Below are positions 3,915-58,483 of a stretch of DNA of 64,000 bases, piece after piece (within the stretch, counting starts at the first letter, position 1; every line of letters starts with the position of its first letter). The translations under genes and the position numbers were made by a program. Under the pieces are notes generated by a model, which searched no databases, was not told the origin of the DNA, and worked only from the letters and a program-made list of their open reading frames with translations. The DNA is taken from positions 62,001 to 126,000 of the forward strand of contig NZ_QLYX01000002.1 of NCBI RefSeq assembly GCF_003289645.1, in the 5' to 3' direction. Source of the stretch: Actinomadura craniellae (GTDB lineage Bacteria; Actinomycetota; Actinomycetes; Streptosporangiales; Streptosporangiaceae).

Positions 3915-4937
3915 GTGCCGACCACTGAGACTCCCGAGACCGCCCCGCCGCCCGCGCGGCTGCTGCGTCGCTGGGACCTCGGCGAGGTGTCCGCCTGCGT
4001 CCCGGTGGGCGAGGGCCGCAGCCGCCGGATCGACGCCTCCGCGGGGCGCTTCCTGCTGCGCGAGTACACGACCACCACCCGCCGGGAACTGCTGTTCCGG
4101 CACTCGGTGCTGGCGGCGCTGGCCGCGGCCGGGCTGCCGGTGCACCCGGCGGCGCCGGCCCGCGACGGCCGCACGGTGCTCCAGAGCGAGGGCCGCCGGT
4201 ACGCGCTGTTCCCCTGGGCGGAGGGGCGGCGGCTGGGCGGGCTGGAACTCTCCCTCACCCAGTGCCACCGGCTCGGCGGGTTGCTCGGCCGGGTGCACGC
4301 CGAACTCGACGCGCTCACCCCGCCGGTGCAGCAGAGCCTCCTGGTGCCCACCCCGCACGCGGCCGAGGCCGTCGCCACGATCGACGGGCTGCTGGCGGCG
4401 CTGCCCGCCGACGGCGACGACTTCGACGCGCTCGCCGAGCGGCGGCTGCGCGAGCGACGGGCCCTGCTGGTCGAGCTGTCCGACCACCAGCCGCCCGAGG
4501 CCGAGATCATGGCGATGGGTCACGTCCACGGCGACTTCCACGACCGCAACCTGCTGTACGGCTGGTCGGGCTCGGTGGCCGCCGTGCTCGGCTGGGACCG
4601 GCTGCGGGTGGCGCCCCTGGCGGGCGAGCTCGTCCAGGCCGCCATCTCCCTGTTCGGGCACCCCGACGAGCGCGGGCTCGACCTCGACCGGGTGGCGGCC
4701 TTCCTCGGCGGGCACGCCGAGGAGCTTCCGCTCGACCCCGGGCAGATCTGCTCGGCGGTGCACCGGCTGTGGTGGGAGCGACTGTGCGACTTCCGGCCGC
4801 TGCGGCGGCGCTACCTCGACCACGACCGGTCCAGCGACCACCTCTTCCCCGGGGCGGCGGCGCTGGTCGAGTGGTGGACGCCCCGCCTGGACCTCACCCT
4901 CGACGTCTTCGCCCGCCCGTACAGCTCCGCCTCCTGA
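3915..4937 (+). CDS. Phosphotransferase (APH/choline kinase-like) family protein
   Basis: 340 aa from GTG 3915, which has GAGGG upstream; in-frame TTG 3876 and GTG 3879 are alternatives. N-lobe features include FLLREYTTTTRRELLFRHSVL (candidate ATP-binding strand and helix). The catalytic loop is HVHGDFHDRNLLY near residue 205. In APH enzymes a metal-binding Asp normally follows in an IDWD-type motif. Here the position reads VLGWDRLRVAP, with Gly where Asp is expected, so activity is uncertain. The substrate is unknown; homologous folds phosphorylate antibiotics, sugars or small alcohols. The region between it and the divergent PPOX gene (3654-3914) probably holds both promoters. Confidence 0.75.
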   Translation: MPTTETPETAPPPARLLRRWDLGEVSACVPVGEGRSRRIDASAGRFLLREYTTTTRRELLFRHSVLAALAAAGLPVHPAAPARDGRTVLQSEGRRYALFPWAEGRRLGGLELSLTQCHRLGGLLGRVHAELDALTPPVQQSLLVPTPHAAEAVATIDGLLAALPADGDDFDALAERRLRERRALLVELSDHQPPEAEIMAMGHVHGDFHDRNLLYGWSGSVAAVLGWDRLRVAPLAGELVQAAISLFGHPDERGLDLDRVAAFLGGHAEELPLDPGQICSAVHRLWWERLCDFRPLRRRYLDHDRSSDHLFPGAAALVEWWTPRLDLTLDVFARPYSSAS

Positions 4938-5103
4938 GCCGGGGGAGCGCGCGGAGCGGGCCGTGCGGAACGAGCGGGCCGCGCCGTGCACGAGCGAGGC
5001 GAAGGAGGCCGTACGCGCGCCTCCCGAAAAGCCCCGGCAACCGGGACGAAACGGTTGTTCTCGCAGGTGGTACCGGGCCACCATGAGGGCGGAGGGCTGA
5101 TAC

Positions 5104-5874
5104 GTGTCGTCACCGTTCCACCGGATGTACTCACCCCCCGAGCCGCCCGCCGCACAGCGGCGGCGCAGCCGGGGCCGCGGTGTGGCGATCGCGGCCGCCG
5201 CCGTGGTCCTGGCCGGCGCGGTGGCGGCCGGCCTGCTGTTACGAACTTCCGCCCCAGGGGCGACCACCACGCGGGCGCGCCCGGCCGCCCCCGCCCCCGC
5301 CTCGGCCCCGGCCGCACGACGGCAGGTGACCGTGGTCCCCTACACCGGCCCGACCGCCCGGATCTCCGACGAGGCCGCCGACCGGCGCCGGCTCACGGTG
5401 GAGGAGGTCTTCCCGTCCGGCCGGTTCACCCTGGACGGGAGGGCGTACACCCGGGACAAGGCGGCCTCGACCCCGCGCTGCGAGTGGACCGCGCGCGGAC
5501 CGCTGGCCGCGGCGCTCGCCGAGCAGGGCTGCGGCCTGGTGGTGCGGGCCACCTTCGTCGACGCCGACCGGCGGCACGCCGTCACCGCCGGGGTGGCGGT
5601 CCTGCCCACCGCTGCGGCGGCCCGGGCCGTGAGCGTGCTGGGCGACCCGGCCGAGCGCACCTGGTTCCGCGGCATGCGGGGCCGGACGGCCGAGAACATC
5701 GACGAGGCCCTCGGGCGTGCGGCCCTGTCGGTGCGGGGCCGGTACGTCGTCTACGCGTACGCCACCCGCTACGACGGCCGCCCGCCCGGCCCCGAACTCG
5801 CCGGCCTCGCCGCGCGCTTCGTCGGGCACGCCGCCCGCCCGCTGGACCGGCGCGCCGCGGGCCGAGCCTCCTGA
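5104..5874 (+). CDS. Single-pass membrane protein of unknown function
   Basis: 256 aa, GTG start with GGAGGG eight nucleotides upstream. A cytoplasmic basic N-terminus (QRRRSRGRG) precedes one membrane helix at about 26-48. An Ala/Pro-rich linker (52-75) follows, then an extracytoplasmic domain of ~170 residues with two cysteines (PRCEW and EQGCG) that may pair. The exported domain has alternating beta segments (GLVVRATFVDADRRHAVTAG, RGRYVVYAYATRYD). No family recognised. It stands alone, with 166 bp upstream and 132 bp downstream containing no other gene. Confidence 0.7.
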   Translation: MSSPFHRMYSPPEPPAAQRRRSRGRGVAIAAAAVVLAGAVAAGLLLRTSAPGATTTRARPAAPAPASAPAARRQVTVVPYTGPTARISDEAADRRRLTVEEVFPSGRFTLDGRAYTRDKAASTPRCEWTARGPLAAALAEQGCGLVVRATFVDADRRHAVTAGVAVLPTAAAARAVSVLGDPAERTWFRGMRGRTAENIDEALGRAALSVRGRYVVYAYATRYDGRPPGPELAGLAARFVGHAARPLDRRAAGRAS

Positions 5875-6006
5875 GGCCTCCTGAGGCCCCCTGCAGCCCC
5901 GGATTCCGTCGTACCGGGGCGGTAGGACGGCGGGCGGGAGACACGCCGCCCACCGAAAGGCTGGAAAACCCTGGAATCGTCAGGAAGATCAGATAACCTC
6001 CGGGCC

Positions 6007-6831
6007 ATGCGGGAGTCGCCCGACGCGCTGGAGGAGCGCATCGCCGAACTGCGCGGGGCCGTCCGGCGCGCGGTGGCCGGCGGCGACCGGCGGCAGGCGC
6101 GGACGCTCCGGGCCAGGCTGCGCGAGGCCGAACGGGCCTGGGACCGGGCGGTGGTCGGCGAACCCGAGCCGGCGCCCGCCGCGGCTCCCCCGGACCGCTC
6201 GGTGCGGGTACCGGCCCGCGAGCACGTGCACCACGCGCTGACCCTGCTCGGCGGCCCGGCCGCACCCAAGCTGATCCTCGCGGTGCACGATGCGTTCTTC
6301 CCCGGGCCGCTCGGCAACTCGCGGATCAGCAGCCTGCGCCGCGACGAGGAGCGTTCCTTCCGCGGCTCCCCCTACGCCCGGCCGTACTATGTGTGCGCGG
6401 CGCTGACCGCGGACCTGCTGGCCCCCGCCCGGGGGCTGCTGGCGATCAGCACCTGGCCGCTGGAGCGGCGGATGGTCGGCCCGCTCAGCCCGCGCACCGA
6501 CTTCCTCACCGCCGCCCTGCGGATCGCCGAGCACCTGGAACGGCTGGGCGACGTGCCCACCCCCGGGGCGCGGCGGCTGCTGTGGCGGTTCGCCGCCAAC
6601 ATCCCCGGTGCCGCCGCCGACCCGGGCGCCGCGCAACCGGCCGGGCTGGCCGCCGCCGCGCGCGCGGAACTCCAGGTCCACGCCGAGGCCGACGCCGCGC
6701 ACCGGGCCACCGCCGCCCGGCGCGCGCTGGACCGGCTCGACGAGGCCGAGCAACTGTTCGGCGCCCGGCTCACTGCGGTCCGACGGCGCACCGGCACCCA
6801 CGGAAAGACAGAAACGGAACCATCGACGTGA
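6007..6831 (+). CDS. Coiled-coil, basic protein; first gene of the nuclease-helicase operon
   Basis: 274 aa. Residues 5-50 form a charged helical segment rich in Arg and Glu that could be a coiled coil. Residues ~72-190 are a mixed region (REHVHHALTLLGGPAAPKL, then SSLRRDEERSF and WPLERRMVGPLSP) that may be a winged-helix DNA-binding fold. The C-terminus (220-262) is helical again. I do not recognise the family. Its stop overlaps the GTG of the Cas4-like nuclease by 4 nt, so the two are translationally coupled. It probably gives DNA binding or complex assembly to the operon (inference). GATAACCT lies 12 nt before the ATG and could be a -10 element. Confidence 0.7.
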   Translation: MRESPDALEERIAELRGAVRRAVAGGDRRQARTLRARLREAERAWDRAVVGEPEPAPAAAPPDRSVRVPAREHVHHALTLLGGPAAPKLILAVHDAFFPGPLGNSRISSLRRDEERSFRGSPYARPYYVCAALTADLLAPARGLLAISTWPLERRMVGPLSPRTDFLTAALRIAEHLERLGDVPTPGARRLLWRFAANIPGAAADPGAAQPAGLAAAARAELQVHAEADAAHRATAARRALDRLDEAEQLFGARLTAVRRRTGTHGKTETEPST

Positions 6832-7922
6832 CCGACCTGGCCGCACGACTCGACCGGCTGCGCGGGGCCGCGCAGCCGCGCAACCACGACGCCCGGACGA
6901 TCGCGGCGCTGACCTCCAACCCGGGCTGCGCCCGGCGCGGGGTGCTGGACGCCGCCGGGATCGACAAAGACGCGATCGCCGCGGAGCTGGGGTTCGCCGC
7001 CCCGTTCGGCCAGTCCCAGTTCGCGATCACCCGGGGCAACGTGTTCGAGGCCCAGGTGAAGGCCGACGGGTGCGCCGAGTTGCTGAGCCTGCTGCGCGAC
7101 CGGCTGGGGCTGTCGATCCCCGAGGTCGCCTACGACGACCTGGGCGTGGTCGGCGGCAACGAGAGCCGCAAGGTGCGGCATGCCCGCACCCGGCAGCTCT
7201 TCGCCCGGGCGCTGGGCGAGGGGCCTGGCACGCTCTTCGACCACCCGTTGCTGCGGCTGGACATCGCCGGCCAGCCCGCCTATCTGGAGCCCGACGTCAT
7301 CGCGTTCCAGTTCGAGGGCCGGTTCCACATCATCGAGATCAAGTCGTTCGCGATGATCGACGGTCAGGCCGACCCGGCGCAGGTGGCCTCGGCCGCCCGG
7401 CAGTCGGCGGTGTACGTGCTGGCGCTGCGCCGGCTGCTGACCGAGCTGGGACACGACGAGGACACCGTCTCGCACGAGGTGGTGCTGGTCTGCCCGGAGA
7501 ACTTCTCCAACCGGCCCACGGCCACCTTCCTGGACGTGCGCCCGCAGCTCGCCGTGCTGCGCCGGCAGCTCGCCCGGCTAACCGGCATCGACAGGATCGT
7601 CGCGGAGCTGCCGGCGGACCTGACCTTCGAGCCCGGCGCGGGGCTGGCCGGCGCGGTGCGCAGCGTCGAGGCCCGGTACTCGCCCGACTGCGTGTCGGGC
7701 TGCGAGATGGCCCTCTTCTGCCGGGACGAGGCGCGGGCCTGCGGCTCCACCGGAGCGCTGGGCCGGTCGATCCGCGACGACCTGGGCGGCGTCGACTCCA
7801 TCGCCACCGCGCTGGCCCTCGCCGACGGCTCGCTGGAGCCCGCCGAGGAGCTGGCCGAGACCGCGGCCGGCCTGCGCCTGGCCGCCCGCCTGCGCCGCGA
7901 GGCCCTGGGCGCCGCCTCGTGA
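6828..7922 (+). CDS. Cas4/RecB-like PD-(D/E)XK nuclease with Fe-S cysteines
   Basis: 364 aa, GTG start inside the stop of the preceding gene. The PD-(D/E)XK core is visible: E74 (RGNVFEAQ), D156 (YLEPDVIAF), E170 and K172 (HIIEIKSF), and Q192/Y196 (RQSAVYVLAL). One cysteine near the N-terminus (C34, NPGCARRG) and a C-terminal group (C288, C292, C298, with C305 spare) match the split four-cysteine arrangement that holds a [4Fe-4S] cluster in Cas4, AddB and Dna2 nuclease domains. Such enzymes are single-strand DNA exonucleases. No Cas1/Cas2 or CRISPR array is nearby, so a CRISPR role is not supported. The partner helicase two genes downstream suggests a Dna2-like nuclease-helicase complex. Confidence 0.85.
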   Translation: MTDLAARLDRLRGAAQPRNHDARTIAALTSNPGCARRGVLDAAGIDKDAIAAELGFAAPFGQSQFAITRGNVFEAQVKADGCAELLSLLRDRLGLSIPEVAYDDLGVVGGNESRKVRHARTRQLFARALGEGPGTLFDHPLLRLDIAGQPAYLEPDVIAFQFEGRFHIIEIKSFAMIDGQADPAQVASAARQSAVYVLALRRLLTELGHDEDTVSHEVVLVCPENFSNRPTATFLDVRPQLAVLRRQLARLTGIDRIVAELPADLTFEPGAGLAGAVRSVEARYSPDCVSGCEMALFCRDEARACGSTGALGRSIRDDLGGVDSIATALALADGSLEPAEELAETAAGLRLAARLRREALGAAS

Positions 7923-7947
7923 CCGTCCCGGTGCGAGAGGCGACGGC

Positions 7948-9432
7948 GTGAGCGCGCTGGGGGCGCTGGCCCGGCTGGAGGCGGTGGCGGCCGGGCGGGC
8001 GGTGCCGGTGGCGACCGTCCGGCACTGCCACCTGTCGGAACGGCCGCTGGTGATCGTGCCATTGCGGCTCGCCGGGGAGGCGGTGGCGCCGCTGGCCGCG
8101 ATGGTCGGCACCGACCCGGAGCGGCCCCGGCTGCTGTTCGTCCCGCAGCCGCGCAACCGCGACCTGCGTTTCCGCTTCGCCGCGGAGCTCGCCGAGGTGG
8201 TGCTGGGCCGGATCGAGGAGTGCCGGACGGCCGTGGAGGAACTGCCGCCGGCCAAGGACGGGACGGAGCGCGTCCGGTACGGCGAGGCCCCGCAGATCAT
8301 CGTGCCGAACCAGGCCGGGGTGGGGTTCCTGCGGATGCTCGGCCGGTCCACCCGGTTCCGCCGCACCGACGGCCCGTACCCGGTGGACCCGGCGGTGCCG
8401 ATGCTGGGCCGCTGGCTGACCTGGTTCGCCGACCGGTACGAGCGTCCCGGCGCCGCGCTGCTGCTCGCCATGACCGAGACGCTGCGGTTGCACTGGGCCA
8501 GCGGGCAGAGCTCGCTGGAGGACGGCAACCTGGCGGCGCTGCTGGGCTGGATCGACCCGCCCGAGGGACTGACCGGGCCGCAGGCCGCGGCGCTGGCGGA
8601 GGACCCGGTGGCCTCTCCCCCGGCCGGGCCCGCCACCGATCCCTCGTTCGACAACGAGGTGCTGGCCCCGGCGATCGCCGGCTACGACGAGGCCGCCGAC
8701 GAGACCGGCCTGTCCCATGCCAAGGAGCGGCTGCGCACGGTGCTGTCCTCCCAGCTCGTCCCCACCTGGGAGCTGATGTGGCGGGCGATCGGCCTGCTGC
8801 GCGCACTGCCCGAGGGGGCGAACGTGGCCGCCCGCCACGACCGCGACCGCGACTCCTTCACCTGGTACGCGGAGACGTTCGAGGAGGGGTTCCCGCAGGC
8901 CCGCCGCGACGACGCGGTCAACGCCGCGCGGCGGCTGCACGACCTGGAGCGCGCGCAGGAGTCCTACGACGCGCAGCGGGCGTTCGACGACCCGCTGGTG
9001 ATGGCCGAGTACCGGCTCACCGGCGAGGCGTTCGGCGGTGTGGTGACCGAGTGCCTGCCGACCCGGCTGGACGAGACCGGCAAGAAGCCGAAGCTGCGGC
9101 CCTGGCTGCGGGTCCGGACCGGCGACCCCGTCCGGCTGGAGCCGGGACGCGCGGTGTGCAGCGCGGCGCGGCCGGGGCTGAAAGGCCGGATCGTGGAGGT
9201 CGCGGCGGGCGAGGTGCTGGTGGAGCTGACCGGCGGGATGGGCCGGAAGCTGACCCCCGAGCCCGGCAGCGTGCCCGAGGTCGGTGACCGGGTGTGCTTC
9301 ACCTCCCTGGGCACCGACTCAGCCCGGGGCCGGCCGAACTTCCCCGAGCGGGAGCAGACGCCGTGGACGCACGGCGGTCCCCCGGCCGAGTACGTCCCCA
9401 CCGACGAGGACGCCCAGGAGGCGTGGTCGTGA
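7948..9432 (+). CDS. Large beta-rich partner protein of the helicase
   Basis: 494 aa, GTG start with GAGAGG eight nucleotides upstream and 25 nt after the nuclease stop. The N-terminal ~160 residues are alpha/beta (ATVRHCHLSERPLVIVPLRL; LLFVPQPRNRD). The middle is helical and acidic. Residues ~355-465 are beta-rich (ACSAARPGLKGRIVEVAAGEVLVEL-like strands) and resemble the barrel that precedes motif I in UPF1/Dna2-type SF1B helicases. Its last codons overlap the start of the helicase gene by 4 nt. I infer it supplies the accessory half of a split helicase. No named family recognised. Confidence 0.7.
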   Translation: MSALGALARLEAVAAGRAVPVATVRHCHLSERPLVIVPLRLAGEAVAPLAAMVGTDPERPRLLFVPQPRNRDLRFRFAAELAEVVLGRIEECRTAVEELPPAKDGTERVRYGEAPQIIVPNQAGVGFLRMLGRSTRFRRTDGPYPVDPAVPMLGRWLTWFADRYERPGAALLLAMTETLRLHWASGQSSLEDGNLAALLGWIDPPEGLTGPQAAALAEDPVASPPAGPATDPSFDNEVLAPAIAGYDEAADETGLSHAKERLRTVLSSQLVPTWELMWRAIGLLRALPEGANVAARHDRDRDSFTWYAETFEEGFPQARRDDAVNAARRLHDLERAQESYDAQRAFDDPLVMAEYRLTGEAFGGVVTECLPTRLDETGKKPKLRPWLRVRTGDPVRLEPGRAVCSAARPGLKGRIVEVAAGEVLVELTGGMGRKLTPEPGSVPEVGDRVCFTSLGTDSARGRPNFPEREQTPWTHGGPPAEYVPTDEDAQEAWS

Positions 9433-10733
9433 CCTTCGATCCGGGCGCCGAGGCCGGGCGGGTCGTCGACGCGGTGCTGGCCGACCTGGCCGCGGGACAC
9501 CGCGGGGTGGTGGTCGACTCGCCGCCCGGCGCCGGGAAGTCCACGCTGGTGGTGCGGGCCGCCGCGCACCTGGCCGGGGCCGGCGAGCGGCTGATGATCG
9601 TCGCCCAGACCAACGAGCAGGTCGACGACCTGATCGACCGGATCGCCACCGGGCATCCGGAGCTGGCGCTGGGCCGGCTGTCGGCCGCCGGTTACGCGCC
9701 CTCGGCCCGGGTCGCGGCGCACCCGGCGGTGCGGATCGCGCAGAAGGCCGCCGACCTGGACGAGCATTCGGTGGTGATCGCCACCGCGGCGAAGTGGGCG
9801 ACCCTGGCGGAAGGGTCGTGGCCGTGGGCGATCGTCGACGAGGCGTACCAGATGCGCTCGGACATGCTGCTGCGGCTGGCGGGGCGGTTCGAGCGGGCGC
9901 TGTTCGTCGGTGACCCCGGGCAGCTCGACCCGTTCTCCACGGTGGAGGTGGAGCGCTGGGCCGGCCTGTCCTGGGATCCGCTGCGCAGCGCCGTGTCGGT
10001 GCTGCTCGCGCACAACCCCGAACTGCCGGTGCACCGGCTGCCGGTCTCGTGGCGGCTGCCCGCCTCGGCCGCCCCGGTGGTGTCGGAGGCGTTCTACCCG
10101 TTCACCGGGTTCCGGGCCGGGACGGCCCCGGGCGACCGGCGGCTGGAGTTCTCCGCCCGCGGTATGGGCACCCCGCACGACCGGGCGCTGGACGAGGCGG
10201 CCGCGACCGGCTGGGCGCTGCTGGAACTGCCGGCCCGGCACACCGTGCGCACCGACTCCGAGGCCGTCCGGGCCACCGCGGCGCTGGCCGTGCGGCTGTT
10301 GCAGCGCGGCGGGGTGGCGCATTCGGAGCGGGGCACCGCGCCGGTGGACGCCGCCCGGATCGCGGTCGGCGCGGCCCACCGCGATCAGGTGACCGCGCTG
10401 CGGGCGGCGCTCGGCCCGGCCGGGGCGGGCGTCACCGTCGACACGGCCAACCGGCTGCAGGGCCGGGAGTACGACGTGACCGTGGTGCTGCATCCGCTGT
10501 CGGGGCGCCGGGACGCCACCGCGTTCCACTTGGAGTCGGGGCGGCTGTGCGTGCTCGCCTCGCGGCACCGGCATGCCTGCGTGGTGGTCGCCCGGGCCGG
10601 GATCCCGGAGCTGCTCGACGCCCACCCGTCCGCGGAACCGGTGCACCTGAACGTTCCGGTGCGCTTCCCCGACGGCTGGGAGGCCAACCAGGCGATCCTC
10701 GCCCACCTGGCGGAGCACCGTGTGCGTGCGTGA
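9429..10733 (+). CDS. SF1 (UPF1/Dna2-like) helicase ATPase
   Basis: 434 aa from GTG 9429. Complete set of SF1 motifs: Walker A SPPGAGKST (31-39), Walker B AIVDEA (134-139), motif III FVGDPGQLDPF (159-169), motif IV-like VSWRLP (206-211), motif V TVDTANRLQGREYDV (336-350) and motif VI CVLASRHRHA (374-383). The GREYD form of motif V is typical of the UPF1/Dna2/AAA_12 group. The protein is compact and lacks the large N-terminal and insertion domains of fused relatives, consistent with the preceding gene encoding them separately. Together with the Cas4-like nuclease it would unwind and resect DNA, in repair or anti-phage defence (inference). Confidence 0.85.
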   Translation: MTFDPGAEAGRVVDAVLADLAAGHRGVVVDSPPGAGKSTLVVRAAAHLAGAGERLMIVAQTNEQVDDLIDRIATGHPELALGRLSAAGYAPSARVAAHPAVRIAQKAADLDEHSVVIATAAKWATLAEGSWPWAIVDEAYQMRSDMLLRLAGRFERALFVGDPGQLDPFSTVEVERWAGLSWDPLRSAVSVLLAHNPELPVHRLPVSWRLPASAAPVVSEAFYPFTGFRAGTAPGDRRLEFSARGMGTPHDRALDEAAATGWALLELPARHTVRTDSEAVRATAALAVRLLQRGGVAHSERGTAPVDAARIAVGAAHRDQVTALRAALGPAGAGVTVDTANRLQGREYDVTVVLHPLSGRRDATAFHLESGRLCVLASRHRHACVVVARAGIPELLDAHPSAEPVHLNVPVRFPDGWEANQAILAHLAEHRVRA

Positions 10734-56884: not shown

Positions 56885-58483
56885 ATGTCTCCGTACGACT
56901 GCAAGCACAACAGGAACGCCGGAGAGGGGACCGTCAGCTATCTGGCGGTGATCTCCCTGCTCAGCGCGGTTCTCGCGACCATCACCATCACCCCCGTCGG
57001 GACGAAGGTGACCGGCGGCATCGAGTCGGCCATCTGCCGGGTCGTGGAGCAGGCCCTCGCCCAGGCCTGCATTCCGAGCACGAACGGCGGCGGTGGCGGC
57101 AACGGCGACGTCTCGTCGGACCCGCCCGTCGACCCGGACGCGCGACCCACACCGGAGGACGACGCGTTCCAGCCGCCCAAGTGCATTCTCGCCCAGGAGA
57201 CGACCAAGACCAGAACGGTGATGCGGATCCTCTTCATCAAGATCAGCTCGACCAGCCAGGTGCAGGTCACCCAGTGGTCCGACGGCACGATCACCGTCGA
57301 CAGCACGGGCGTCGCCGCCGGCGGGGTGGAAGGCGGGCTGGACATCCCCGGACTCAGCCAGTGGGGCGGCGATGCCTCGTTGCAGGGCAGCTTCACCAAG
57401 GGCGGCGGCGGCGGCGGACGGTGGCTGTTCGACAAGCACAAGACCGGTGACCCGCAAAGGGACCTGGAACTCAACCACGCGGACGCCGAGCAGTTCATCG
57501 AATACCTCAAGGGCGCGGCCAGGTGCAACTCCCGCCCGCCCGGAGCGCGCAGCACCGAACTCGGCATGCTCTGCCACCACTCCAACCAGGACAAACTGCC
57601 CCCGCTGCCGCCCGACCGGATCCCCGACCTGGACATCACCCGGACCACCATGGAAGCCTCCGGCGAGTTCGAGTTCGGCGGGGCCTTCAGCAAGGGCGAC
57701 AAGAAGATCCTCAGCGGCATCACCCGGGGCCTCAGCGGCACCGTGCTCGACGACGTCCTGGTGCTGCGCGGCGGCAACAACGAGCTCACCTTCGTCTACA
57801 CCATGGAGATCGGCGGCAAGATGGGCGCCGGCTACCAGGCCGAAGGCTCCTACATGCAGCAGGTCTACGTCACCTACAAGGCCGACGAGTACGACAAGGC
57901 CAAGAAGGAGGGCCGGCCCCAGCGCCCGACCTACCTGCAGGTCGTCACCTCCCGCCGGGGCGCCGACGGCAACCCGGGCGGCGACGTCAAGATCAACCCG
58001 CAGGTGGGACCGTTCACCATCCAGGTCGAGGGCGGCGGCGGCGAGACCGAAACCACCGTCCACACCGAGGTCGCCGAACTGGACCTGAGCAACAGCCCCG
58101 GCGACAGCGAGATCGTCCAGAACTGGCTGGAGGGCCGCGGGCGCAACCCCGCCGCCAGCCTGCCCACCCCCCGGGACTTCACCAACCCCCTGCCGCCCAA
58201 CGCCTCCGAGTTCGAGAAGCTGATGCACGGCAAGGGCAAGATCAGCAGCCTCGACTACAAGGTCAACATCGACTGGTGGCGGGCCGCCTTCGCGATCAGC
58301 CTCGGAGTGGCCACGCGCAAGGGGGGGACCACCGGCTTCAAGCTCTTCGGCCTGGAGATCAGCCAGGAGACCGAGACCCAGACGCTGACCGGCAACCCCC
58401 TCTTCGCGGGCGCGCCCGACCCCGACGGGAGCCGCCCCTGGTTCCCGTTCACCAACTGCTCCAAGGTCAAGCCGGTTCCCTGA
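56885..58483 (+). CDS. Unknown exported protein, paralogue B, pilin-like N-terminus
   Basis: 532 aa, roughly 85% identical to paralogue A by eye from residue 9 onward, with the same N-terminal motif (RNAGEGTVSYLAVISLL), linker, Gly-rich beta domain and six shared cysteines. One extra Cys lies at position 6. The most variable stretch is the linker (TNGGGGGNGDVSSDPPVDPD). The leader before it is also duplicated, with the segment CGGTGCCGGTCGGAAGCTAG corresponding to the sequence before A. The 3' end overlaps the convergent methyltransferase gene by 17 bp. Confidence 0.8.
   Translation: MSPYDCKHNRNAGEGTVSYLAVISLLSAVLATITITPVGTKVTGGIESAICRVVEQALAQACIPSTNGGGGGNGDVSSDPPVDPDARPTPEDDAFQPPKCILAQETTKTRTVMRILFIKISSTSQVQVTQWSDGTITVDSTGVAAGGVEGGLDIPGLSQWGGDASLQGSFTKGGGGGGRWLFDKHKTGDPQRDLELNHADAEQFIEYLKGAARCNSRPPGARSTELGMLCHHSNQDKLPPLPPDRIPDLDITRTTMEASGEFEFGGAFSKGDKKILSGITRGLSGTVLDDVLVLRGGNNELTFVYTMEIGGKMGAGYQAEGSYMQQVYVTYKADEYDKAKKEGRPQRPTYLQVVTSRRGADGNPGGDVKINPQVGPFTIQVEGGGGETETTVHTEVAELDLSNSPGDSEIVQNWLEGRGRNPAASLPTPRDFTNPLPPNASEFEKLMHGKGKISSLDYKVNIDWWRAAFAISLGVATRKGGTTGFKLFGLEISQETETQTLTGNPLFAGAPDPDGSRPWFPFTNCSKVKPVP

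What the first reader, a model, noticed from the sequence alone, without database searches (positions are those of the whole stretch)
6007..10733. Four-gene split-Dna2-like nuclease-helicase operon, candidate uncharacterised repair or defence system
Seen: four plus-strand genes with 4-nt overlaps or a 25-nt gap. They encode a basic coiled-coil protein, a PD-(D/E)XK nuclease with a Cas4/AddB/Dna2-like cysteine set (C34 plus C288, C292, C298), a beta-rich 494-aa protein and an SF1 helicase with all motifs. Known: in Dna2 and AdnAB/AddAB the same activities are fused or paired for end resection. Inferred: here the helicase barrel and motor are on separate chains, making a four-subunit machine. 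There is no CRISPR or Cas1/Cas2, and I do not recognise the first and third proteins.
Basis: partly seen in the sequence, partly recalled or inferred. Interest (0 to 1): 0.78.

Follow-up and report, generated by a model that had tools for sequence, protein, structure and literature searches.

The report
Split Dna2-like nuclease-helicase operon in actinobacteria
A four-gene cluster, unnamed in the databases searched and kept in about 94% of sampled Streptomyces genomes in a three-gene form, looks like a DNA-end-processing machine whose cutter, helicase arm and helicase motor are made as separate proteins.

Summary
Genes A (6007-6831), B (6828-7922), C (7948-9432) and D (9429-10733) are real and tightly packed. 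B carries a PD-(D/E)XK/QxxxY core and four cysteines (C34, C288, C292, C298) that are invariant in 122 of 122 sequences. D is an SF1B Upf1/Dna2-type motor, but it starts about 25 residues before Walker A, so it lacks the stalk and barrel. C is predicted to end in long helices plus a beta-barrel, the missing part; this match is structural and weak, with no sequence signal. Gene order B-C-D copies Dna2 domain order.

The genes travel together: the same 16 of 60 relatives hold B and C, distances correlate at r 0.89-0.98, and diverged B-C-D occurs in another actinobacterial class. A diverged A-B-C-D sits behind an integrase on an IMG/VR contig. C was found in 141 of 150 Streptomyces genomes; examined chromosomal copies are B-C-D at a conserved site. 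Accessory A-B-C-D copies are subtelomeric or on plasmids, most beside SbcCD, two also beside Wadjet. A C-D pair without B occurs on actinobacterial plasmids with MoxR-VWA genes.

Most likely a split Dna2-like DNA-end or flap processor, probably repair. No assay exists. New variant of a known kind.

The parts
6007..6831 (+). Gene A, 274 aa, pI 10.8. Predicted N-terminal helical hairpin (residues 5-50, UVR-like), then a winged-helix-like part (helices 70-120, strands 129-147) and helices. Likely DNA-binding or adaptor subunit; absent from the examined main Streptomyces copies.
   Evidence: UvrB C-terminal domain 1qoj, rmsd 0.7 over 46 columns, but E 2.5; sub-threshold UVR hit E 0.077 and winged-helix hit E 0.067 in two homologues
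6828..7922 (+). Gene B, 364 aa. Cas4/AddB/Dna2-like PD-(D/E)XK nuclease: D156, E170-x-K172, Q192-x3-Y196, cysteines C34, C288-x3-C292-x5-C298 (inferred 4Fe-4S).
   Evidence: profile match to Cas4 in the right motif register, score 22.4 against shuffled maximum 20.9
7948..9432 (+). Gene C, 494 aa. No database family. Mixed N-terminal region, long helices 252-347 and a C-terminal beta-barrel about 361-452: candidate stalk and barrel of the helicase.
9429..10733 (+). Gene D, 434 aa. SF1B Upf1/Dna2-like motor (two RecA folds by homology), Walker A at about residue 31-38, no room for stalk or barrel.
   Evidence: (SMUBP-2 2.1e-10, DNA2 4.6e-8, UPF1 3.3e-7)

Best explanation
B, C and D form a split Dna2-type nuclease-helicase. 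D is the ATP-driven motor, C supplies the stalk and barrel that Upf1/Dna2 helicases carry on the same chain, and B is an iron-sulfur PD-(D/E)XK nuclease through which single-stranded DNA is threaded and cut. A, where present, is a basic winged-helix adaptor that helps load the complex on DNA. The expected substrate is a DNA end, flap or stalled fork, with 5'-to-3' translocation as in SF1B enzymes; the chromosomal form would serve DNA repair. Shown: the genes, their conservation, co-inheritance and motifs. Inferred: complex formation, the iron-sulfur cluster, threading, polarity, substrate and cellular role.
For: B: four cysteines invariant 122/122 and nuclease residues mostly kept, also in relatives from another class. 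B aligns with Cas4 at motif II, ExK and QxxxY, above all 60 shuffled controls. D profile matches SMUBP-2, DNA2 and UPF1. D residues 24-83 align with SMUBP-2 204-264, so about 180 N-terminal residues are missing from D. Dna2 is built as a nuclease of about 310 residues, then stalk and barrel, then a helicase of about 450 residues (PMC4716839), matching B 364, C and D 434 in the same order. C model: pLDDT 88, helices then barrel; Dna2 5ean is the first Foldseek hit and Ighmbp2 4b3g is listed. C-D stay paired even where B is absent. The same 16 of 60 relatives carry B and C; distance correlations 0.89-0.98. Near-universal in Streptomyces, 141/150, at a conserved locus. SbcCD sits divergently beside A in seven accessory loci.
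Against: No sequence-level link between C and Upf1-like barrels; the Foldseek E-value for Dna2 is 0.009 with TM 0.16, and most other hits are generic barrels. B reaches no Pfam, NCBIfam or PDB nuclease model and its hhalign probability with Cas4 is only 1.4%. E170 is lost in 11 of 122 B sequences, so nuclease catalysis is not always needed. No structure of B and no complex was modelled. Upf1-family motors can act on RNA. Streptomyces already has AdnAB as its main end-resection enzyme (PMC5869714).
Confidence: 0.55

Rival explanations
1. It is primarily an antiphage or antiplasmid defence system: the complex attacks DNA ends of invaders, and A provides recognition.
For: A diverged A-B-C-D set lies directly behind a tyrosine integrase and before Vsr and a C5 methyltransferase on an IMG/VR contig. 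Streptomyces accessory copies are subtelomeric or on plasmids, two of them next to Wadjet. Patchy outside Streptomyces: 15 of 36 other genera of the window's family carry B. Related C-D pairs accompany MoxR-VWA genes on plasmids; MoxR-VWA systems are known conflict systems (PMC7159879).
Against: Present in 94% of Streptomyces genomes with one conserved location. Flanks in Actinomadura and Streptomyces hold no recognised defence gene. No PADLOC model matches A, B or C apart from noise-level hits. The two Wadjet plasmids are related to each other, so they count as about one event.
Confidence: 0.25
2. It acts on RNA or RNA-DNA hybrids: a Upf1-like motor with an iron-sulfur nuclease that removes R-loops or primer-bearing flaps.
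For: D's closest solved relatives include UPF1 and SMUBP-2, which act on RNA or DNA (PMC4716839).
Against: B's motifs belong to DNA nucleases of the RecB/Cas4/Dna2 group; neighbours of accessory copies (SbcCD) are DNA enzymes.
Confidence: 0.1
3. It is mainly an ATP-driven remodeller; B is a structural iron-sulfur DNA-binding subunit whose cutting activity is optional.
For: The four cysteines are invariant in 122/122 and the motor in 114/114, while E170 is replaced in 11 B sequences, including one Streptomyces accessory group with L170 and R172 and the Herbidospora type. C-D pairs exist without B.
Against: About 91% of B sequences, including those of Streptomyces main copies and the distant classes, keep D156, E170 and K172.
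Confidence: 0.1

Closest known systems
Eukaryotic Dna2 nuclease-helicase
   Same: Iron-sulfur type PD-(D/E)XK nuclease plus Upf1-like SF1B motor; order nuclease, stalk and barrel, motor; similar sizes (PMC4716839).
   Different: Three chains instead of one; cysteine spacing C-x3-C-x5-C; an extra large N-terminal region in C; gene A has no Dna2 counterpart; C-to-barrel link is by predicted fold only.
AddAB, AdnAB and RecBCD
   Same: Helicase plus RecB-family nuclease for DNA ends; AddB-like cysteine set.
   Different: Those motors are UvrD-like SF1A; here the motor is SF1B Upf1-like with no UvrD-type match above the curated cut-off, and nuclease and motor are not fused.
Cas4 and solo-Cas4 nucleases (PF01930)
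   Same: One N-terminal cysteine plus a C-terminal cysteine triplet around a RecB-like core; motif register aligns.
   Different: No Pfam match; twice the length; no cas1/cas2 or CRISPR; obligate pairing with C and D. The Cas4 survey names UvrD-like and COG1205 helicase links, not this one, in the passages read (PMC5704561).
TM0106-type RecB-like nuclease fused to a Upf1-like helicase (recalled name)
   Same: Nuclease-like and Upf1-like helicase parts joined in bacteria; such fused proteins appeared in the TIGR00376 search (L179, L181, L183).
   Different: One long chain; not membership-tested here.
Mokosh (MkoA/MkoC) helicases
   Same: D matches the helicase part of MkoA in PADLOC (6.2e-13).
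   Different: Large fused proteins with other partners; only the shared motor matches.

Membership tests
Dna2-like nuclease-helicase | PD-(D/E)XK nuclease with four iron-sulfur cysteines | tested here: met
   Motifs and four invariant cysteines by alignment; cluster itself not testable
Dna2-like nuclease-helicase | Upf1-like SF1B motor | tested here: met
Dna2-like nuclease-helicase | Stalk and beta-barrel between nuclease and motor | tested here: inconclusive
   Predicted helices and barrel in C, Dna2 first in Foldseek but E 0.009; no profile signal
Dna2-like nuclease-helicase | Nuclease and motor on one polypeptide | tested here: not met
   Separate genes in all loci read
Cas4 (PF01930) | Match to the family model above cut-off | tested here: not met
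   B gives no Pfam family; window genome has no PF01930 match
Cas4 (PF01930) | RecB-like core with cysteine set | tested here: met
AddAB/AdnAB/RecBCD | UvrD-like SF1A motor | tested here: not met
   UvrD models below cut-off, AAA_11/AAA_12 above
Known defence system in PADLOC 2.0 | Models matching the component set | tested here: not met
   the 2023 library misses later systems
Mokosh | MkoA or MkoC full-length architecture and partners | tested here: not met
   Only motor segments match
MoxR-VWA ternary conflict systems | MoxR and VWA genes in the operon | tested here: not met
   Absent beside the window operon; found only beside the related plasmid C-D pairs

The most novel reading that the evidence does not exclude
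C and D are a previously unrecognised two-subunit Upf1-like helicase used as a common engine with exchangeable partners: an iron-sulfur nuclease (plus A, and SbcCD in mobile copies) or a MoxR-VWA pair on plasmids, giving bacteria a Dna2-like end-resection route, and in Streptomyces a near-universal one beside AdnAB.
Probability: 0.4. Interest if true: 0.85.

Novelty: new variant of a known kind. Interest (0 to 1): 0.72.

Why it matters
Streptomyces are major antibiotic producers with linear, unstable chromosomes. A nuclease-helicase set present in nearly all of the sampled species but without any named family for three of its four proteins would add an unstudied actor to how these genomes handle ends and breaks. 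It would also show a Dna2-like machine built from separate chains, and a helicase module shared between probable repair and probable conflict systems. The question is directly testable by deleting B-C-D in a laboratory Streptomyces strain.

Tried and rejected
Direct family searches of A, B and C (Pfam, PADLOC, NCBIfam) gave only noise. hhalign of C against the N-terminal parts of seven bacterial Upf1-like helicases gave nothing, while D as control matched at 99.2%. The weak PF14518 hit of A was rejected because it covers 42 residues below the cut-off. Fold search of A gave no hit with E below 0.001. No A-B-C-D relative by C or B in the phage collection. A first region request failed for length and was repeated. 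Literature searches found no paper on this gene set in the held library. Considered and dropped: CRISPR association (none near), Wadjet partnership (two related plasmids only).

Full report
OBSERVATION.

WHAT EACH PROTEIN IS. D matches AAA_11 and AAA_12 above their cut-offs, and its family profile matches SMUBP-2, DNA2 and UPF1 in the PDB. B has no family match, but alignment of orthologues shows D156, E170-x-K172, Q192-x3-Y196 and cysteines C34, C288, C292, C298. Across 122 sequences from the fetched loci the cysteines and Y196 never vary; E170 is kept in 111. Profile comparison with 17 Cas4 proteins aligns the nuclease motifs in register; the score, 22.4, exceeds all 60 column-shuffled controls (mean 13.3, SD 2.3, maximum 20.9), and profiles of A, C and D score 10.8-13.6. 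The hhalign probability itself is low, 1.4%. So B is a RecB/Cas4/Dna2-type nuclease by motif, with moderate statistical support; the iron-sulfur cluster is inferred.

C has no database family. Its AlphaFold2 model (pLDDT 88) shows long helices 252-285, 293-313, 323-347 followed by a beta-barrel about 361-452. The first of 350,542 PDB chains by Foldseek is Dna2 (5ean), E 0.009, and Ighmbp2 is rank 50; neither is significant alone, and generic barrels fill most ranks. hhalign found no link to bacterial Upf1-like N-terminal regions. The argument that C holds the stalk and barrel therefore rests on predicted fold plus arithmetic: D residue 24 aligns with SMUBP-2 residue 204, so D lacks that part, and in Dna2 the order is nuclease, stalk-barrel, helicase (PMC4716839).

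A is a basic protein whose model shows a helical hairpin, a winged-helix-like unit and helices. The hairpin superposes on the UvrB C-terminal domain (rmsd 0.7 over 46 columns, E 2.5), and single homologues give sub-threshold UVR and winged-helix hits. This is suggestive only.

CONSERVATION. A scan of GTDB genomes with C gave 80 loci, all actinobacterial. B and D lie next to C wherever the contig extends far enough, except that in one locus (L079) D lies about 5.5 kb downstream and in its relative L083 D was not found in the 2.4 kb held. B and C occur in the same 16 of 60 relatives (one further genome has a C fragment); chance of identical sets about 7e-15 if genomes were independent, which they are not. 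Pairwise distances correlate: A-B 0.92, A-C 0.95, A-D 0.89, B-C 0.98, B-D 0.97, C-D 0.95; shared ancestry explains part of this. Diverged B-C-D sets in another class were found in four genomes, one possibly with a broken C (L147).

DISTRIBUTION. C was found in 141 of 150 Streptomyces genomes. Flank clusters recur within Streptomyces, Actinomadura, the Planobispora/Streptosporangium group and Herbidospora, but differ between these groups, and the window shares the Actinomadura flanks. The flanks tested hold regulators, metabolic genes, a GGDEF-EAL protein and an HrpA-like helicase, no recognised defence gene. That is vertical, housekeeping-like inheritance. The examined main Streptomyces copies lack A, and A was found in 5 of 61 Streptomyces genomes, in accessory copies.

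MOBILE FORMS. Accessory A-B-C-D copies were read on plasmids (L117, L118) and in second chromosomal copies (L121, L122, L140-L145, L150). L140 is within 10 kb of a contig end and L150 has a twin at the other end of its chromosome, consistent with terminal repeats. SbcCD lies divergently beside A in L117, L118, L121, L140, L141, L145, L150 (broken up in L117), but not in L122, L142-L144. Wadjet JetABCD follows D on L117 and L118, which are related to each other. An IMG/VR contig (L184) holds a diverged A-B-C-D set at 4106-8696, after a tyrosine integrase and before Vsr and a C5 methyltransferase.

C-D WITHOUT B. Searching plasmids with the L184 motor gave 47 records, mostly Rhodococcus and Mycobacterium. 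In six of the seven regions read, the gene before the motor is a 388-396-aa protein preceded by a small ORF and a VWA-like gene, with an annotated ATPase/MoxR gene before it in five; in Euzebya a DNA cytosine methyltransferase stands there instead. These upstream proteins are homologous to C: hhalign probability 96.8, E 2.6e-10. No B was found in the annotations or by profile in that protein. So C-D behaves as a unit with exchangeable partners.

MECHANISM. Most likely D translocates on single-stranded DNA 5' to 3', held by C, and feeds it to B. Steps shown: gene set, motifs, co-inheritance. Steps inferred: complex, cluster, substrate, polarity, role. Repair is favoured for the chromosomal form by near-universal presence; defence is favoured for some mobile copies by context. 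Repeated loss of E170 with all cysteines and motor motifs kept suggests that B also has a structural role.

NOVELTY. No named system matched within the libraries and papers available; subscription papers, preprints and post-2023 defence lists were not covered. I file it as a new variant of nuclease-helicase machines. It is Dna2-like in plan but fails the single-chain feature, so it is not called Dna2.

Noticed in passing
L187, L188, L189, L190, L192, L193 (plasmids; e.g. L187:3056-8137): A C-like protein and D-like motor follow a small ORF and a VWA-like gene (with an annotated ATPase/MoxR gene in five of six) on Rhodococcus, Mycobacterium and Xylanimonas plasmids; no B or A.
   Followed up: partly
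L184:2708-10315: Diverged A-B-C-D set on an IMG/VR contig directly behind a tyrosine integrase and before Vsr and a C5 methyltransferase.
   Followed up: partly
L117, L118, L121, L140, L141, L145, L150: SbcCD divergent from accessory A-B-C-D copies in Streptomyces; two plasmids also carry Wadjet next door; some copies subtelomeric.
   Followed up: partly
L115, L125, L126, L127, L080, L082, L084, L015, L016, L017, L013: B sequences that lost E170 of the ExK motif (A, L, T or Q) while keeping all four cysteines.
   Followed up: partly
L098:7349-8302 and other Streptomyces loci: A PAP2-like phosphatase-looking membrane protein gene ends at or just inside the start of B in Streptomyces main copies; identification by eye only.
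   Followed up: no
L079:11449-17002: About 5.5 kb with other genes separates C from an intact D.
   Followed up: no
L147:1325-2623: C homologue broken by stop codons between intact-looking B and D in a genome of another class.
   Followed up: no
window:53694-54563: PET-hydrolase-like protein, PF12740 at 1.6e-118.
   Followed up: no
window:54995-56587 and 56885-58483: Two neighbouring ORFs of nearly equal length (530 and 532 aa) without a Pfam match at 1e-5; not compared with each other.
   Followed up: no
window:14911-18834 (minus): HrpA-like helicase with DUF3418, a conserved downstream neighbour also in Actinomadura.
   Followed up: no
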